From Allofranklinella schreckenbergeri (GTDB lineage: Bacteria > Pseudomonadota > Gammaproteobacteria > Burkholderiales > Burkholderiaceae_C), in NCBI RefSeq assembly GCF_003703475.1, contig NZ_RDQM01000010.1, forward strand, positions 62,001 through 126,000: a DNA stretch of 64,000 bases. Direction: 5' to 3'. The notes beneath the pieces were generated by a model. It was not told the DNA's origin and searched no databases. It worked only from the letters and a program-made list of their open reading frames with translations. Position numbers and translations under genes: made by a program. Of this stretch, positions 26,500-32,997 are shown in pieces; the stretch's first letter is position 1, and every line of letters starts with the position of its first letter.

Positions 26500-28407
26500 A
26501 TGAAAAATACCTCAGGTTTGTGCCGCATTGGGGAATCATGCCGTGTTTTTTTATGGCCGCTTCTGGCATGTATGGTGGGATGGCAGCAGCTTGCCCAATA
26601 CATGCATGCTGAGGTGTATTACGACGCTCAGCACACCTATTTGCCCTATGCCCAGCGATTCTTGAACGAGGGTTGGTCGTTTCTGCTCACCCCGGAAAGC
26701 TATCAGGTCGTGCCATTGGCTTATTTATGGCTGGCCGTCTGGCAGGTAGAAACGCAATGGATTCGTTTCGCTAATTGTGGTTTATGGGTTTGTTGCGTCT
26801 TTTTTCTATGGTCCAGCGCACGTCAATTGGGGGGCGAGCGCGCGGGCATAGTGGCCTTGGCGCTATGGCTGGTTAATCCGGAAATCCATCGCTATTTCCC
26901 TAGCGAATTGACGGAGCCGATTTTCCTGTTTGGCTTGTTGTGCTGGACTTGGAGCATGCTGGGACTGATACAAAGGCCCAACCGCTGGCTAATTGGCGCG
27001 GCCGCCTTGGGGCTGTGCATCACCTTGCTTTCGCGGCCTGTATTGCAATTGATGGCCCCATTGGGTTTATTGGTTTGCGTGTTTTTTTTATGCTGGACCA
27101 AATTCAAAAAACGCCAATACGCTTGGGTGCCTTCTGTCAAAGCCATTGCCTGGAGTTTGGCGCTGGGTATGCTGATTCCGGTGGCGCTGGTCATCAAAAA
27201 TATCTTGGTTTTCGGGCTGTGGGGGCTTGGCACGGGTGCAGGCTCCGGTATTTATCTGGGCACACATATTCTTTTTCAGGGGGCTGAACCCATTTATCTG
27301 GGCTTCAATTTCGATAATGTTCTCTATACCCGGGAAAATTTTCATCACTTGGGAGTAGAAGAAGATGGCGCTGCCCGCTTGGTGGGCATGTGGCAATTGG
27401 CCTCCATGCCATTGGGCGATGTGCTGGCGTTTTTATTGCGCAAACTGTGGTGGTGGCTGACGCACCACCCCGCCGTCTTGCTGCAAGAAGGCGCTTTCAT
27501 CCGCCAATTGCGTTTGCTGGAAATCGGCATGGTGTTATGGGCGCTGGGGATCATGGCCTACACCTATGCACGCGGCGGCAGGCAAGCCCTGGCGCAGCGC
27601 TTGCTGGGCCACCCTTTGTCCATGCGTTTGGTGGGGGCGGCATTTCTGCTGCTGATGTTTTTGGGGCTGCTGGCCCAATTGCTGCCCATTCTCTACAACA
27701 GCCGCTACAGCACCACCTTGTTAGGGCCGTGGCTGATACTGCTGGCCGCCTGGGCTTTCTCGATTGTGACGGCTCCGCTGCGCACATCCTGGCGTTGGCG
27801 TACCTGGGCGCTGCGGGCGCGCTCGCCGCATGGCATCGTGCCCTTGCTGCTGGTTGCGGCAGCGCCCGTCGCCCTTGCCTCCGCAGCCTATAACTACGCC
27901 AAAAAACATGATGTGCTGGCCATCGACCAGCCCGGCCCCACCCGCACCGTGCGCGCCGTGCCTGCCGCCCCTGTTGCCGCTCTGAACCTGACCCCGTCAG
28001 GCAAAAACCGCTGGGTCACGACCGAGCCCGTGGCCGTGCTGACGCAGGAATTCACCGCTGAGGACGTCGCCGCGCTGGCCGCCAGCCCCGTCTACAACGC
28101 CTTGTGGCGGCTGGAGTGGGAAATTTCCCCCAAAGGCCGCACCTGCAAACCGGCCCATGTGGCCTACCAACAGCACGACGGCACGATTCGGGGGGAGGGC
28201 TTTGTGTTGCCGCTGCGCAGCTATGGGCAGCGCACGACGGCCTATGTGCATGCCAACCGTACCTTGCGCCCAGATGTGCCTGGGCGTTTGCACATCACGC
28301 TGAGTTGTCCCGTGGGCAGTGAAGTCACCTGGTTTGGCGCTGCCCTATTGGAAAGCACTTATTCGCTTGAGTGGACTCGACGTTTTGAAGCCAGGCAGAA
28401 ATCGTAG
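26500..28407 (+). CDS. Polytopic membrane protein, probable GT-C type glycosyltransferase
   Basis: A 635-residue protein with about 10-11 predicted membrane helices between residues 15 and 470 and a soluble C-terminal domain of about 160 residues. The first periplasmic loop carries YYDAQHTYLPYAQRF, an acidic pair after helix 1 as in dolichol-phosphate-type transferases (ArnT/PMT-like). Loops RYFPSELTEPIFLFGLL and RPVLQL are also typical of that architecture. The C-terminal domain (after NYAKKHD) looks like a beta-rich binding module. The first two thirds are AT-richer than the flanks. Donor and acceptor are unknown. A second GT-C-like gene lies at 29686. Confidence 0.6.
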   Translation: MKNTSGLCRIGESCRVFLWPLLACMVGWQQLAQYMHAEVYYDAQHTYLPYAQRFLNEGWSFLLTPESYQVVPLAYLWLAVWQVETQWIRFANCGLWVCCVFFLWSSARQLGGERAGIVALALWLVNPEIHRYFPSELTEPIFLFGLLCWTWSMLGLIQRPNRWLIGAAALGLCITLLSRPVLQLMAPLGLLVCVFFLCWTKFKKRQYAWVPSVKAIAWSLALGMLIPVALVIKNILVFGLWGLGTGAGSGIYLGTHILFQGAEPIYLGFNFDNVLYTRENFHHLGVEEDGAARLVGMWQLASMPLGDVLAFLLRKLWWWLTHHPAVLLQEGAFIRQLRLLEIGMVLWALGIMAYTYARGGRQALAQRLLGHPLSMRLVGAAFLLLMFLGLLAQLLPILYNSRYSTTLLGPWLILLAAWAFSIVTAPLRTSWRWRTWALRARSPHGIVPLLLVAAAPVALASAAYNYAKKHDVLAIDQPGPTRTVRAVPAAPVAALNLTPSGKNRWVTTEPVAVLTQEFTAEDVAALAASPVYNALWRLEWEISPKGRTCKPAHVAYQQHDGTIRGEGFVLPLRSYGQRTTAYVHANRTLRPDVPGRLHITLSCPVGSEVTWFGAALLESTYSLEWTRRFEARQKS

Positions 28408-28483
28408 TGCGCGGGCCGGATATTCTTTGGGCACATGTTGTATCGGCCTCTGGACATCTGAGTGAGGGTATTTACTGATACCG

Positions 28484-28525
28484 TATTCTCTGCGCATGGC
28501 GCACGATGCCTCTGGAGCGGTAGCT
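28484..28525 (+). pseudogene. Remnant similar to the prfC 3' end
   Basis: The 42 bases translate as YSLRMAHDASGAVA against YPLRMAHDAAGALA in prfC (26284-26325); 32 of 42 bases match, including a 17-base exact run, and most differences are synonymous. No longer similarity is visible on either side. Reads best as a leftover fragment of a second, diverged prfC copy. Confidence 0.45.
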
Positions 28526-28585
28526 GTGGCAGGCGAGGCTCTATTGTGTGGACGTGTTTCTCGAACTAGTAGCTAAGGAGGTTAT

Positions 28586-29605
28586 ATGCTCTTTCGTCGC
28601 AATTCATTAGCGAAAGCTGTTTTTTCGATTTTCTCTTTGACGGCAGCAATTGCCTATGCGGCTGATCACAATTGGAGAGCTCCAATTGTTAATAACGGGT
28701 CTATTGCATCGAAATTTTGGGCGCCTTCGGATGGGGTTTATTTTTTTGATATGGCCCCAGGGACGAATTTTGTGCCTCATTCACAATGGAATGTGAATGA
28801 CATGACGTTTGCCGGGATTCAAAATAGTTCTAACTTTCAGGCTTCGGTTGATCCGAATGGCTATGGGTGGACCTCTGTGCAATGGCAGGGCGATAAGTTC
28901 TCTGCGTGGCTAAATACTTGGAGTGTTAATCCGAGCAGTAATCCTCTTGTGAATTATTGGTCTATCGGTTTTGGCGGGTCGATACCTGGGGATAATCGCG
29001 CATGGAGTTCTTATCAATTTGGCGCAAACCCCATGCTTTGTTCGGCTCATTTTCAAAAAGTTAACAGGCTTTTCACGGCTGGAGATATAGCTTTATATAA
29101 TTTTGTCGGGCTTTTCATTCAGGATGTTTCAACTGGTAGAACTATCAATATGGTTGTTGCCGTGTGGGATAGCAGGCCTAATTTTCAGTTTTATGAAAAC
29201 ATAGGTGTGGACGTTCAGGTTGGAGCGTTTTTGCAGAGCTACATCGGAGGGAGCAGGTATACTACTCTCATGCCATGGAGTCAAACTGCTCAATCCGGTT
29301 CTGAAAGGCCTGAAGAATGGTATGGTTTTTGTATCACAAAAGCCAACCTCTCAAACATAATTAACGATTTCAATGAGCGACTCAGTCGGGATCGCGATGA
29401 TTTGTCTGCGATGCGGAATAGACTGGCGTGGCAAGATAAATATCTTGAGTCTATAAATTCGGTTCCATCTGTTTCATTGGATCATAATAATTATAGGGTG
29501 ACTGCGGTGTATCTTCAGCCGGAGGCGGGAAATGTTAGAAATCCGGGTGCTGGGGGGCATGTGGGTATTGTTATGCGCGAAAATTGGGTTTTTACTCGAT
29601 ATTAA
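28586..29605 (+). CDS. Secreted protein of unknown family (paralogue of 31753-32712)
   Basis: A 339-residue protein with a signal peptide (cleavage likely after AIAYA, residue 25) and an excellent ribosome binding site, AAGGAGG. The mature part is rich in Asn, Ser, Trp, Tyr and Gly, as in extracellular beta-proteins. It shares ordered blocks with the product of 31753-32712: DPNGYGW with GDKFSAWLNT, GDNRAWSSYQFGANPMLC, PEEWYGFCITKANL and GGHVGIVMRENW. The only two cysteines of the mature chain, Cys152 and Cys249, are 97 residues apart, exactly as in the paralogue, so a disulfide is likely. AT-rich compared with flanking core genes. Function unknown; I recognise no domain. Confidence 0.7.
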   Translation: MLFRRNSLAKAVFSIFSLTAAIAYAADHNWRAPIVNNGSIASKFWAPSDGVYFFDMAPGTNFVPHSQWNVNDMTFAGIQNSSNFQASVDPNGYGWTSVQWQGDKFSAWLNTWSVNPSSNPLVNYWSIGFGGSIPGDNRAWSSYQFGANPMLCSAHFQKVNRLFTAGDIALYNFVGLFIQDVSTGRTINMVVAVWDSRPNFQFYENIGVDVQVGAFLQSYIGGSRYTTLMPWSQTAQSGSERPEEWYGFCITKANLSNIINDFNERLSRDRDDLSAMRNRLAWQDKYLESINSVPSVSLDHNNYRVTAVYLQPEAGNVRNPGAGGHVGIVMRENWVFTRY

Positions 29606-29642
29606 TATTCATTTGATGTTTTTTTGAGATTGCATTTTATTG

Positions 29643-29676
29643 ATCGAGCGCATAAAAAGCGCTCGATTTTGTTTTC
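29643..29676 (+). terminator. Terminator of the secreted-protein gene
   Basis: Perfect stem ATCGAGCGC (29643-29651) / GCGCTCGAT (29659-29667), seven-base loop, then TTTTGTTTTC. Confidence 0.82.
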
Positions 29677-29685
29677 TTAGTATTT

Positions 29686-31020
29686 ATGAAAAACAGTGTT
29701 TTTAGGGTTGCGCTAACCATAAGTTTGGCTTTGTTCTTTCTGCACGCCACTTGGTATTTGGCCGTGTGGCCTGGTCCCATCGGGGAAGATGGGTATTCAG
29801 TTATTTCAAATATCGAAAGAGGTGTGCCTAAGTATTCAGGGAAAGAAGCTGCATGGCTTCTTTATGTCTTAGCAACTTATAGCATGACTTGGCGGCTGGA
29901 GGCAGTCGTTATTCCTTTGATTCTGTTGCAGGTTGCCATTTTTACCCGTATTTTATCCTGGAATTATGCGCAAGGTTATCGAAAAACGGCGTTGTTCCTT
30001 CTGACTTGGATTGCTTGTGCCCCGCATGTGATGAATTTTGAAGTCAGTCTTTATCCTGATGCGGTATTTAGTCTAGCGTTTATAGGGGTTTTATTTGAAG
30101 TTTGGATTGGTCTAAAAGAGAGGCAGATTAAACCCTGTGGTGCATGGGCGATTGCCTGTATGCTGCCTGCGGCAGCTTTTTTTAAAGCCAATGGCATTTT
30201 AATTTTTGTGCCGGTTTTGTATTTGGCTTACCGTTTGCAGGGGCGCTGGCGCTGGTTTTTGGTGGCGGCTTGTGTTTTTTGGGCTGCTTTGGTGCAGATC
30301 GGCAGCAAGGTGCATGATTTAGGTAATGGGCATGGTGCATTGAAGCCACTCGTGCTGTTTGAAACTGTTAATTTTATGCAATCGAAGCCTATGGGGTTGT
30401 GGGAAAACCGCCAAATGGTGACGGAAAAGACGCAGAAAATTATATATAAATATATTTCTCAGCAGGACATTGATGCTTTATACGACCGTGATTATTGGGA
30501 TACGCTTTGGCATCAAAATCGTGATCGGGTAAGATTCTGGCAAATGTCTGCGGAGGATCGTCGCGCCCTGCGGTACGATTTTTTCACTTATAATTTGTGG
30601 CGAAATTTGCCGGCATTTTTATCTAGCCGGGTTAATATTTTTTTGGCGTCGGCTTTTGCCCAGGGAGGTATCGTACGACCGGATAATGCGATGCATTATA
30701 TAGATAGACTACAGACGGTTTCGAAAAAAAATACCTTCGACTTGGAGATTTTGCCTGGTGTGGCGGATAAATCTTTTCAGTTGAGTTACGATTGGCGCTT
30801 TCTGTGGTGGACGCCGTTTTTTGGCGTGTTCCTGATTGTGATTTGCTCTTGGACGGCCATGCGCCAAAAAGCGTGGGACGACGCAGTGGTAACATGGACT
30901 CTTTTGGTGCAACTGGGAGGTATATTTGTTTTTTCTATCGCGGCGGAATACCGTTATCTGCTATTGATTTTTTACAGCCCCCTATTGTTGCTTCCCTTGC
31001 GATATCTACAAAGAAAATAA
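29686..31020 (+). CDS. Polytopic membrane protein, GT-C-like
   Basis: A 444-residue integral membrane protein with about ten helices. After helix 1 comes VWPGPIGEDGYSVISN, an acidic loop position like that of GT-C transferases, and CAPHVMNFEVSLYPDAVFSLAF carries a further acidic residue at a membrane edge. A soluble stretch of about 100 residues (GALKPLVLFE to DRLQTV) lies between the helical halves. The codons are visibly AT-richer than core genes. The start ATG has no clear Shine-Dalgarno and follows the terminator of the upstream gene by ten bases. Substrate unknown; a role in surface glycan synthesis is plausible but inferred only from architecture. Confidence 0.6.
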   Translation: MKNSVFRVALTISLALFFLHATWYLAVWPGPIGEDGYSVISNIERGVPKYSGKEAAWLLYVLATYSMTWRLEAVVIPLILLQVAIFTRILSWNYAQGYRKTALFLLTWIACAPHVMNFEVSLYPDAVFSLAFIGVLFEVWIGLKERQIKPCGAWAIACMLPAAAFFKANGILIFVPVLYLAYRLQGRWRWFLVAACVFWAALVQIGSKVHDLGNGHGALKPLVLFETVNFMQSKPMGLWENRQMVTEKTQKIIYKYISQQDIDALYDRDYWDTLWHQNRDRVRFWQMSAEDRRALRYDFFTYNLWRNLPAFLSSRVNIFLASAFAQGGIVRPDNAMHYIDRLQTVSKKNTFDLEILPGVADKSFQLSYDWRFLWWTPFFGVFLIVICSWTAMRQKAWDDAVVTWTLLVQLGGIFVFSIAAEYRYLLLIFYSPLLLLPLRYLQRK

Positions 31021-31248
31021 CAAGAGGTGTGAAGGACGAGGTTTCGAGATTATTGGTGAAAACTGACTTCTCATTTCTAATAGCCTACCTTTCGAGGTTT
31101 TTTTCAAGGAGGGGCCTTTCACTCTCCTTTACCCAGAGGGATTAGGGAGGAGAGATGCTCCCCATTGTATTGGACCATATGCAGCGCGCAAGCGTCTTAC
31201 CGATCCCGCCCCCACACCTTCTCTCCCTGAACCCTGTCCCGTACAAGA

Positions 31249-31407
31249 GCCTGTTCAAAATCTTTGCACGGCGAGCAATGGAACCCGGATTTGGGCGGTC
31301 TGCGGCGTCGCAAAGCCCCGCCATGGCGGCGGCTATGGCGTGTTCTGCGCCTTGCAGCCCATCCCAAACCGCTTCTTGTCCACTTCGCGCCGAGATTTTG
31401 AACAGGC
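31249..31407. mobile_element. Family 3 element with 15-base inverted ends (MITE-like)
   Basis: GCCTGTTCAAAATCT (31249-31263) and its exact complement AGATTTTGAACAGGC (31393-31407) bound a 159-base GC-rich segment without coding capacity. A smaller GAGCCTG/CAGGCTC hairpin at 62555-62582 shares the end sequence. Confidence 0.55.
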
Positions 31408-31537
31408 CCCAACAGGTTGCTGAAATACTTCCGCAAAGAGGCATCAACCCCTCTATCAAGGGGTGCCTGGTTGGGCCCCCTTACCCATGCCGAAAAAACC
31501 GCTTGTAGCTCGTTTTGAATGGTCGACCTGCAAGTGG

Positions 31538-31600
31538 CTAGAGCGTGTTATGCACTTTTCGCCCCCCCCGTGAGAGCGCAAAGTGCATAACACGCTCTAG
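31538..31600. repeat. Family 2 element, short 63-base form
   Basis: Perfect 21-base inverted arms starting CTAGAGCGTGTTATGCAC (31538-31558 and 31580-31600) around a C-rich loop and GAGAGCGC. It reads as the long form with the middle deleted between its two GAGCGC repeats. Confidence 0.8.
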
Positions 31601-31752
31601 AAGGCCAAAGCAGTATTTCAGCAGCCTGCTAAGTGGGGTTGTACGGGGCGCTTGGGCAGGCATCCGGAAAAGACTTTGAAAAGCCGGGCTTTGAGTAGGT
31701 TTTGGAAGGAGGTTTTCCCCCTTAATTCCAAAATTATTTTCGAGATGCGCTT

Positions 31753-32712
31753 TTACTGTTTAATGATAAATATATTCCATTCGCGGAAGCGGGCTCCCAT
31801 ATGCCCCGTAATTGGTTTTTTTGCGCTAATTTCTCCGCCGATAACAGCAAACTTTAGGCTGTAATTGGCGACATTATTGGAGTAGTATGGCAGCAACGGT
31901 TCATTCCGTTGCATGCGCACCTGGTTGATGGCAGCAACCTGACTATTGGCCGCGTCAATTACCGAAAGTAAATTGTTTTTATAAATGCAAAATCCAAACC
32001 AATCCTCTGTGTTCCACGTCGAGCTTCTACTCAAAGCAGAGCCGGGTGATGTGGAAAAATGGTTTTGAGTTCCATAGTTTGCATTAGTCCAAAACCAGCC
32101 TGTTTCTGTGTCTAGGCCACTGTGCTCGGTAAGGTGTGATGGGTTGCTATCGTAATATAGCCCGCCGGCAGTCAAGGTTAATTGGGTTGAGTTGTCGTAT
32201 AAATTAAAAGCGGATCCTCCTTGATTATTAGATCCCGCGCCATGCCATGATACTGGGACTGCTGCAAAAAAAGCATTGCAAAGCCCCGGATTGTTTCCAT
32301 AAGTCTGGCTCCAAGGTCTAATATCTCCAGAAAAATTTACCTGATAATTTGTGGTGTAAAGCGGGTCTGGTCGATTGTTTGGAGGTGCGGAATCTGTGTT
32401 TATAAAAAAAGAAAACTTATTCCCATAACCTTGAACCGCTGATGCACCTTGCCAATTGGGATCTACGGATCTCTCATAGATAGGTTTCAAATGCTGAGGA
32501 ACATGCAGGCCTGTGAAATTTTCTATCCCTACGGACGGGGTGTAATTGTGACTTCCTAGGGCGAAATTTAAAACGGTCAAGGTATTCGGCTGGTATGAGT
32601 TTATGTAATTAGAAATTGGCGGCATTACGGCAGGGGATGAAAATAGCCAAACATTTTGAGATAGAGCTGTGGAGCTCACCAATGCCAACGTGACGGCGGT
32701 CAATTTTTTCAT
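31753..32712 (-). CDS. Secreted protein of unknown family (paralogue of 28586-29605)
   Basis: A 319-residue protein with a signal peptide (cleavage likely after TALSQ, near residue 19) and a strong AAGGAGG ribosome binding site. Blocks shared with the other paralogue: SVDPNWQGA with YGNKFSFFINT, FSGDIRPWSQTYGNNPGLC, NTEDWFGFCIYKNNL and TGHMGARFREWN. Its only cysteines, Cys145 and Cys242, are 97 residues apart, as in the paralogue. Overall identity is low, so duplication is old or the two came separately. It is AT-rich, Asn/Ser/Tyr-rich and opposite in strand to the rest of the island. Function unknown. Confidence 0.7.
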   Translation of the reverse strand: MKKLTAVTLALVSSTALSQNVWLFSSPAVMPPISNYINSYQPNTLTVLNFALGSHNYTPSVGIENFTGLHVPQHLKPIYERSVDPNWQGASAVQGYGNKFSFFINTDSAPPNNRPDPLYTTNYQVNFSGDIRPWSQTYGNNPGLCNAFFAAVPVSWHGAGSNNQGGSAFNLYDNSTQLTLTAGGLYYDSNPSHLTEHSGLDTETGWFWTNANYGTQNHFSTSPGSALSRSSTWNTEDWFGFCIYKNNLLSVIDAANSQVAAINQVRMQRNEPLLPYYSNNVANYSLKFAVIGGEISAKKPITGHMGARFREWNIFIIKQ

Positions 32713-32997
32713 TTCAGCCTCCTTTTGGTTTGAAAAACACAGATTCGGATCGAATCATTAAAATTTCATAGACCAAATAACGGTGTGTGGCTCGGTAGAC
32801 GCGTTTTCGCACAAATGCTGTACTCATCTTTTTTGCTGGGATACTCAACCCCATCACTCGTAACGAATTTAATGGGGCGTCGCTCCATCAGCAACTAGGA
32901 GGGCACAAGAGCTCTTTAGTGGTCTACCAAGATTGGTTATTGGAGTGGGCCAGTGTAGAAAGCGAAATGGTTCAGTGTGAGAGGGTTAACCCATATC
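32713..32997. other. Intergenic region ahead of the island's minus-strand gene
   Basis: 285 bases that hold the promoter of the secreted-protein gene and the 3' flank of fnr. A CCCCAT/ATGGGG hairpin spans about 32848-32875. Otherwise nothing I can name. Confidence 0.4.

What the first reader, a model, noticed from the sequence alone, without database searches (positions are those of the whole stretch)
28586..32712. Two divergent paralogues of an unrecognised secreted protein family
Both have signal peptides and four collinear blocks (DPN..., G-D-x-R-x-W-S ... N-P-x-L-C, E-(D/E)-W-(Y/F)-G-F-C-I-x-K-x-N-L, G-H-(V/M)-G). Their only two mature cysteines are exactly 97 residues apart in each. They flank a GT-C-like gene on opposite strands, both with strong ribosome binding sites. 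I recognise no known domain.
Basis: partly seen in the sequence, partly recalled or inferred. Interest (0 to 1): 0.78.

Follow-up and report, generated by a model that had tools for sequence, protein, structure and literature searches.

The report
Phage-borne family of exported jelly-roll proteins
Two exported bacterial proteins of unknown type turn out to belong to a rare, apparently undescribed family that is often carried by bacterial viruses and may share its shape with sugar-binding and sugar-cutting proteins.

Summary
The two ORFs (28586-29605 +, 31753-32712 -) are homologous (BLASTP E 1e-19), look exported, share the four blocks and have two cysteines 97 apart. No significant Pfam, NCBIfam, PHROG, PADLOC or PDB-sequence match was found. 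Six further core members turned up; the five with a leader keep the cysteine pair (spacing 98-102), the sixth has no leader and lacks the second cysteine. The family is rare: 3 of 399 genomes of the bacterial family, own included. Five of six core loci lie in or beside phage genes, though three of these come from a viral collection. Core genes are poorer in GC than their surroundings at 6 of 6 loci, as in phage 'morons'. The window pair is not a fresh duplication: each member is closer to a protein elsewhere than to its partner. It sits in an interval that a near relative fills with two other membrane-protein genes. Two low-confidence AlphaFold models suggest a ConA-like jelly roll, nearest GH12/GH11. 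I read it as exported, disulphide-stapled, glycan-directed phage cargo. Carriage is well supported, the fold only moderately, and function is inferred.

The parts
28586..29605 (+). family member 1 (P0001, 339 aa): leader about residues 1-25, Cys152/Cys249, conserved D180 and E313
   Evidence: GC 0.44 against 0.635 for the window outside 28586-32712
31753..32712 (-). family member 2 (P0002, 319 aa): leader about residues 1-18, Cys145/Cys242
   Evidence: GC 0.44
28575..28581 (+). ribosome-binding site (AAGGAGG) of member 1
   Evidence: read
32718..32725 (-). ribosome-binding site (AAAGGAGG) of member 2
   Evidence: read
29642..29668 (+). terminator-like hairpin (10 pairs, 6 G-C) with a T-rich tail just behind member 1
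   Evidence: pattern scan: 10 sites found, shuffles 5.8 +/- 2.7; this one has the longest stem
29686..31020 (+). membrane protein of 444 aa between the two members; GT-C-like by architecture only; GC 0.44
   Evidence: no significant family; GC; 7 hydrophobic segments
28401..32979 (.). variable interval holding both members; in near relative G597 the same interval (4.2 kb) holds two relatives of the 26500-28407 membrane protein instead
31245..31407 (.). about 160-bp dispersed repeat with inverted arms (MITE-like) between the membrane-protein gene and member 2
   Evidence: arms; at least 12 further long direct copies at 80-91% in the genome
31537..31601 (.). about 60-bp palindromic dispersed repeat

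Best explanation
The two genes are members of a so far unnamed family of exported, apparently single-domain, disulphide-stapled beta-jelly-roll proteins that travels largely as phage cargo ('moron' / lysogenic-conversion genes) among bacteria of this family and order. Most likely each is expressed in the lysogen or late in infection, exported through the inner membrane, closed by a Cys152-Cys249 disulphide in the periplasm, and acts there or at the cell surface by binding (possibly cleaving) a glycan, which would give the carrier an advantage such as exclusion of competing phages or changed surface sugars. In this genome two members of different sub-lineages have come to lie in a chromosomal interval that varies between near relatives. 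Shown: homology, leaders (by hydropathy), cysteine conservation, phage neighbours at five of six loci, low GC, variable site. Moderately supported: the jelly-roll fold. Inferred: disulphide, glycan as ligand, time of expression, benefit.
For: Phage carriage: L019 carries two members between NinG and the terminase/portal genes. In L007 one lies behind tail, endolysin and Rz-spanin genes. In L006 one lies on plus between phrog_204/210 genes and a CI-like repressor, all on minus, with an Ant anti-repressor beyond. In G147 it lies about 3.7 kb from an integrase, with phrog_11341 and phrog_18222 proteins on either side. In G1404 it lies about 2 kb from a fragment of a giant phage protein, phrog_21376, E 1.7e-84. 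Core genes have lower GC than the rest of the locus at 6 of 6 loci. Rarity, own genome included: 3 of 399 in the family, 1 of 10 in the genus. Cysteines conserved at 97-102 spacing in 7 of 7 members with a leader; the leaderless member lacks the second. Fold: for the model of P0001 (pLDDT 59.6, pTM 0.66) the seven PDB chains at Foldseek E<=1e-3 are all GH12 (best 4.2e-5); VIA Z 7.5 at the top, first ten rows ConA-like by recalled classification. For the model of P0011 (pLDDT 48.5, pTM 0.58) the first ten VIA rows are GH12, Z 6.6-6.2. Motif: E313 falls on the Glu of the GH12 V-Q-x-G-x-E strand in 6 of 6 alignments and D180 on the Asp of Y-D-I in 4 of 6; shuffled GH12 gave both in 7, 1, 2 and 2 of 150 and 1 of 60.
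Against: Selection: three of the five phage-associated loci were found by searching a viral collection; from whole genomes there are two core loci besides the window (G147, G1404), both with phage genes near, and the window itself, with none clear. Fold: both models have low confidence; Foldseek TM-scores for the PDB rows at E<=1e-3 are only 0.17-0.29 with rmsd 11-18, unrelated chains (virus capsids, a somatostatin receptor) appear close below, and Z 6.2-7.5 is in the range the tool calls common without true relationship. Both models rest on the same six sequences. Profile comparison with GH12 was not significant (probability 0.2-1.4%), PF01670 matched no member, and BFVD gave nothing at E<=1e-3. 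The Asp alone is reached by shuffles in 21-48 of 150. The second GH12 carboxylate has no invariant counterpart. No INPHARED phage or PLSDB plasmid matched the members tried. The two distant members (G444, G923) have no phage gene that I noticed near them. No glycan, phenotype or expression was tested.
Confidence: 0.5

Rival explanations
1. Catalytic relatives of the GH12/GH11 fold: secreted endo-glycanases that use E313 with D180 or the nearby E204 to cut a host or competitor polysaccharide.
For: Fold neighbours are GH12/GH11; D180 and E313 are invariant in 9 of 9 aligned members and present in P0013; E313 falls on the GH12 Glu in 6 of 6 alignments. By eye, a Glu lies at or within a residue or two of the E204 column in 8 of 10 members.
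Against: No invariant Glu at the GH12 nucleophile; hhalign not significant; P0013 and P0006 lack a Glu near E204; models of low confidence.
Confidence: 0.2
2. Chromosomal glycosylation accessory: the pair works with the neighbouring membrane proteins, for example as periplasmic acceptors or sugar-recognising partners of surface glycosylation.
For: In the window both lie beside possible GT-C proteins, and near relative G597 has two relatives of the left neighbour in the same interval.
Against: No glycosyltransferase was noticed beside the other five core loci; the membrane protein between the pair is not confirmed as GT-C, nor are the two in G597 by Pfam.
Confidence: 0.15
3. Phage-encoded secreted effector or toxin aimed at a predator or a competing bacterium, with the jelly roll as its binding part.
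For: Exported phage cargo of low GC; a RelA/SpoT-domain ORF with a PADLOC candidate match lies beside the L007 copy.
Against: No recognised effector domain in the core members scanned; one phage copy has no leader.
Confidence: 0.12

Closest known systems
Phage morons / lysogenic-conversion genes (criteria as in PMC2920897, passages seen; HK97 gp15 seen only as a reference-list entry in PMC11436027)
   Same: Single genes between phage modules, GC unlike the surroundings, variable presence
   Different: No PHROG family matches these proteins; the window pair is not among phage genes; own transcription not shown
Glycoside hydrolase family 12 (PF01670; clan GH-C with GH11, clan name recalled)
   Same: Predicted jelly-roll topology, a helix before the last strands, a V-Q-x-G-T-E-like motif (I-G-T-E-I-F in P0013)
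   Different: No significant sequence match; no invariant nucleophile; conserved cysteine pair; phage carriage
L-type lectins / ConA-like proteins
   Same: Same general fold class in the model of P0001 (Z 7.5, ERGIC-53)
   Different: No sequence match; ligand unknown
P22 SieA and other superinfection-exclusion proteins (PMC10883804: listing and start of abstract; PMC11436027: passages)
   Same: Prophage genes acting in the cell envelope
   Different: SieA is an inner-membrane protein (PMC11436027 passage); these look soluble and exported; exclusion not tested

Membership tests
GH12 (PF01670) | sequence match above the Pfam cut-off | tested here: not met
   no PF01670 match at E<=5 for the two window proteins, at E<=10 for nine aligned members or P0013; none in the own genome at E<=10
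GH12 (PF01670) | ConA-like beta-jelly-roll fold | tested here: inconclusive
   two low-confidence models, best Z 7.5 and 6.6; Foldseek TM-scores low
GH12 (PF01670) | acid/base Glu on the strand V-Q-x-G-x-E (role recalled) | tested here: inconclusive
   aligned in 6 of 6 real alignments; shuffles put an E there in 16, 5, 13 and 10 of 150 and 6 of 60
GH12 (PF01670) | nucleophile Glu on the strand E-L-M-I-W (role recalled) | tested here: inconclusive
   no invariant Glu in that region; the alignment is unreliable there
phage moron | inserted among phage genes | tested here: met
   L006, L007, L019; G147 and G1404 near phage genes. Not met for the window pair: of eight nearby ORFs six have no PHROG match and two match a zinc carboxypeptidase and a translation factor
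phage moron | GC differs from the rest of the phage | tested here: met
   6 of 6 core loci lower than the rest of the fetched stretch: 0.44/0.63, 0.42/0.62, 0.50/0.56, 0.42/0.57, 0.53/0.65, window 0.44/0.64
phage moron | own promoter and/or terminator | tested here: inconclusive
   window only: a 10-pair terminator-like hairpin behind P0001 (10 sites in all, shuffles 5.8 +/- 2.7); 9 promoter-like sites, shuffles 7.4 +/- 3.1
[quoted passage not shown]
   three phage contigs with different neighbouring modules; phage classes not assigned
superinfection-exclusion protein | blocks infection of a lysogen by other phages | not testable with these tools
   needs a plating assay

The most novel reading that the evidence does not exclude
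A phage-carried offshoot of the GH12/GH11 fold that has lost its catalytic nucleophile and gained a disulphide, and works as an exported glycan-binding shield or decoy in superinfection exclusion; in at least one phage (L019) it comes as a tandem pair of a leaderless and an exported form that act in two compartments.
Probability: 0.13. Interest if true: 0.75.

Novelty: new variant of a known kind. Interest (0 to 1): 0.5.

Why it matters
Exported phage cargo of unknown function is a large blind spot: such proteins can change the envelope of lysogens but match no library. This family has a clear signature (cysteine pair, conserved D and E, a W-D-S-R-like stretch, V-Q-x-E-like strand), several phage carriers and a testable fold hypothesis, so a single structure or binding assay could turn a set of hypothetical proteins into a described class. 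If the link to the GH12/GH11 fold holds, it would show a polysaccharide-degrading fold reused by temperate phages.

Tried and rejected
Named family: Pfam, NCBIfam, PHROGs, PADLOC and PDB sequences gave only chance-level matches for core members (NCBIfam was run only on the window proteins). The one 1.6e-5 Pfam match (HpiC1-like, 1 of 9 members) I take, by inference, to be the C-terminal extension of P0007; that table does not say which member. TraK_2 and fimbrial StfF matches lie far below cut-off and were rejected. BFVD: no viral structure at E<=1e-3.

Plasmid or cultured-phage carriage: no match in plasmids for P0001, P0002, P0012, P0013, nor in phages for P0001, P0002, P0011, P0010, P0012, P0009, P0013. 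Genome-contig scans found no relative. Viral contigs: eight scans gave three contigs over and over or none.

Clear GH12 homology: hhalign of the family, or of P0013 alone, against two GH12 proteins aligned only 8-16 residues, probability 0.2-1.4%. Recent duplication: rejected on relative identities. RNA feature: no Rfam match at 24-37 kb. The only tRNA in the window is at 1330-1406, so no tRNA attachment site is near.

Rows left out: alignment A12 leaves out P0009, P0006 and P0007; the folding alignments hold only six window and IMG/VR proteins. G595 was fetched and aligned only at the regulator and HemN-like genes; G188, G594 and G596, found with the same regulator gene, were not examined. 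A hydropathy scan stood in for signal-peptide and membrane predictors. No tree was built.
Full report
Observation. Both ORFs exist where stated and are homologous: E 1e-19, 30% over 207 residues. They share the four blocks, a hydrophobic leader, strong ribosome-binding sites and two cysteines exactly 97 apart. The middle gene encodes a membrane protein without a significant profile match; its GT-C identity stays unproven.

Relatives. The own genome holds only these two. Searches gave six more core members. P0012 (L006), P0011 (L007) and the tandem pair P0009/P0010 (L019) are in IMG/VR contigs. P0003 (genome G147) and P0013 (genome G1404) are in the same bacterial family. Two distant members are P0006 (G444, same order, E 2.3e-10 and 1.5e-14) and P0007 (G923, same class, E 6.7e-8); these two together match the core profile at probability 96.8%, E 2.9e-10. 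The leaderless phage copy P0009 matches the core profile at 97.3%. Counts, own genome included: 1 of 10 in the genus, 3 of 399 in the family, 2 of 399 and 2 of 300 in the order, 2 of 369 in the class; without it, 1 of 6 in the genus of G147. A first family search with P0001 alone found 2 of 200. The samples overlap, and queries differed (P0001, A1, A2, A12).

Conserved features. In nine aligned members D180, Y303, E313, G321 and W334 are invariant; the alignment is rough at its ends. P0013, aligned with six others, keeps D180, E313 and W334, while Y303 and G321 are not invariant there. The two cysteines occur in all seven members with a leader (spacing 97, 97, 98, 98, 98, 98, 102; P0011 has one more inside the leader). 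P0009, which has no leader (maximum hydropathy 0.40 against 1.85-2.75 in the seven), keeps the first in the alignment and lacks the second. The distant P0006 and P0007 do not show the pair. The pattern in the core is what a periplasmic disulphide predicts, but no disulphide was measured.

Not simple paralogues. P0001 is 38% identical to the L006 phage protein in a pairwise alignment. In one common alignment it is 36% identical to P0012 but 26% to P0002 and 24% to P0013. P0002 is 36% identical to P0013 over 317 residues, E 1e-55, including the end G-H-M-x-A-R-F-R-E-W. Each is closer to an outside protein than to its partner. I read this as two acquisitions or an old split; no tree was built.

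Phage carriage. L019: DnaC-like loader, NinG, an HNH ORF, then P0009 and P0010, then terminase small and large subunits and portal. L007: tail protein, endolysin, Rz-like spanin, P0011, then a RelA/SpoT-domain ORF near the contig end. L006: phrog_210 and phrog_204 on minus, P0012 on plus, CI-like repressor on minus, Ant and O-like replication genes beyond. G147: P0003 lies about 3.7 kb from a tyrosine integrase, with phrog_11341 and phrog_18222 proteins on either side. G1404: P0013 lies about 2 kb from the end of a giant phage protein (phrog_21376, E 1.7e-84). Three of these five come from a viral collection, so the share is biased; from whole genomes it is two of three core loci, the window being the third. 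Gene GC is below that of the rest of the fetched stretch at 6 of 6 core loci, and at one of the two distant loci clearly so (G923 0.44/0.56; G444 0.65/0.67). A study of Burkholderia prophages (PMC2920897, passages seen) lists as marks of morons insertion among phage genes, own transcription control, deviant GC and occurrence in several phage classes. The first and third are met here for the phage copies, the others are open.

The window site. Of eight ORFs around the pair that I scanned, two matched PHROGs, as a zinc carboxypeptidase and a translation factor, both ordinary cellular types. The flanks are a release factor RF3 gene and a possible GT-C gene on the left, a Crp/Fnr-type regulator and a HemN-like gene on the right. 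In near relative G597 the flanks are 89.7% and 96.4% identical, but the 4.2 kb between them hold two other membrane proteins. The four left-type proteins of the two loci are 28-39% alike, apart from the orthologous pair at 92%. The two in the interval have no Pfam match at E<=1e-3. No family member was found in G597, a genome about 80% complete, nor among the ORFs of that stretch. So the interval 28401-32979 is a variable site. Between the membrane-protein gene and member 2 lie two dispersed repeats found in many copies in this genome, which may have helped such exchange; that is inference.

Fold. AlphaFold2 with six rows gave pLDDT 59.6 and pTM 0.66 for P0001, and 48.5 and 0.58 for P0011, both as a beta-sandwich with a helix before the last strands. 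Foldseek's seven PDB chains at E<=1e-3 for P0001 are all GH12 (best 4.2e-5); for P0011 the two at that level are GH11 xylanases. Their TM-scores are low (0.17-0.29), and unrelated chains follow closely in both lists. VIA-align gave Z 7.5 (L-type lectin ERGIC-53 and a GH12 protein tied, rmsd 4.2-5.1, 157-183 residues) and Z 6.6 (GH12, rmsd 4.7-4.9, 154-161 residues; first ten rows GH12). These Z values are in the range where a chance arrangement is possible; agreement of the two models is the better argument, though they share one set of sequences. BFVD gave nothing at E<=1e-3. Sequence gives no significant link. The Glu at 313 falls on the Glu of the GH12 V-Q-x-G-x-E strand in 6 of 6 alignments and the Asp at 180 on the Asp of Y-D-I in 4 of 6. 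Control shuffles reached both in 7, 1, 2 and 2 of 150 and 1 of 60 in global mode, a mode in which the real sequences reached only the Glu; the Asp alone was reached by 21-48 of 150 shuffles, so it says little. Reversed sequences reached neither (2 of 2). That the Glu is the GH12 acid/base and that E-L-M-I-W carries the nucleophile is recalled knowledge. I do not file the family under GH12.

Mechanism. Export and disulphide are likely; action in the periplasm or at the surface follows; a sugar as ligand is suggested by the fold only; benefit to lysogen or phage is suggested by carriage only. Paper searches listed nothing that, from titles and abstract starts shown, describes such a family (one search showed 6 of 24 papers); the searches returned no paper. 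That bears on open-access papers only.

Verdict. It is best seen as phage-borne exported cargo with a probable ConA-like jelly roll.

Noticed in passing
window 31245-31407 and 31537-31601: Two dispersed repeats with inverted arms: one of about 160 bp with at least 12 further long direct copies at 80-91% identity, and a palindrome of about 60 bp at some two dozen places, full or partial (65 matches in all for the 401-base query, itself and both strands counted, 40 of 139 candidates scored).
   Followed up: partly
window 28401-32979 against L026 2041-6210: The interval between the prfC side and the fnr/hemN side differs wholly between near relatives; in G597 three related large membrane proteins stand in a row there.
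   Followed up: partly
L007 9300-10328: ORF with a RelA_SpoT domain (PF04607, E 2.1e-20) and a PADLOC candidate-defence match (PDC-S33, E 4.9e-18) beside the phage family member; possible prophage defence gene.
   Followed up: partly
L019 8811-9803: Leaderless homologue directly in front of an exported one in a phage genome; it lacks the second cysteine.
   Followed up: partly
L016 7418-9055 and 10125-11654: Next to the G147 member: an Ig-domain protein with an IPTL-CTERM sorting motif, and an ORF with a weak, sub-cut-off proteasome-like match.
   Followed up: no
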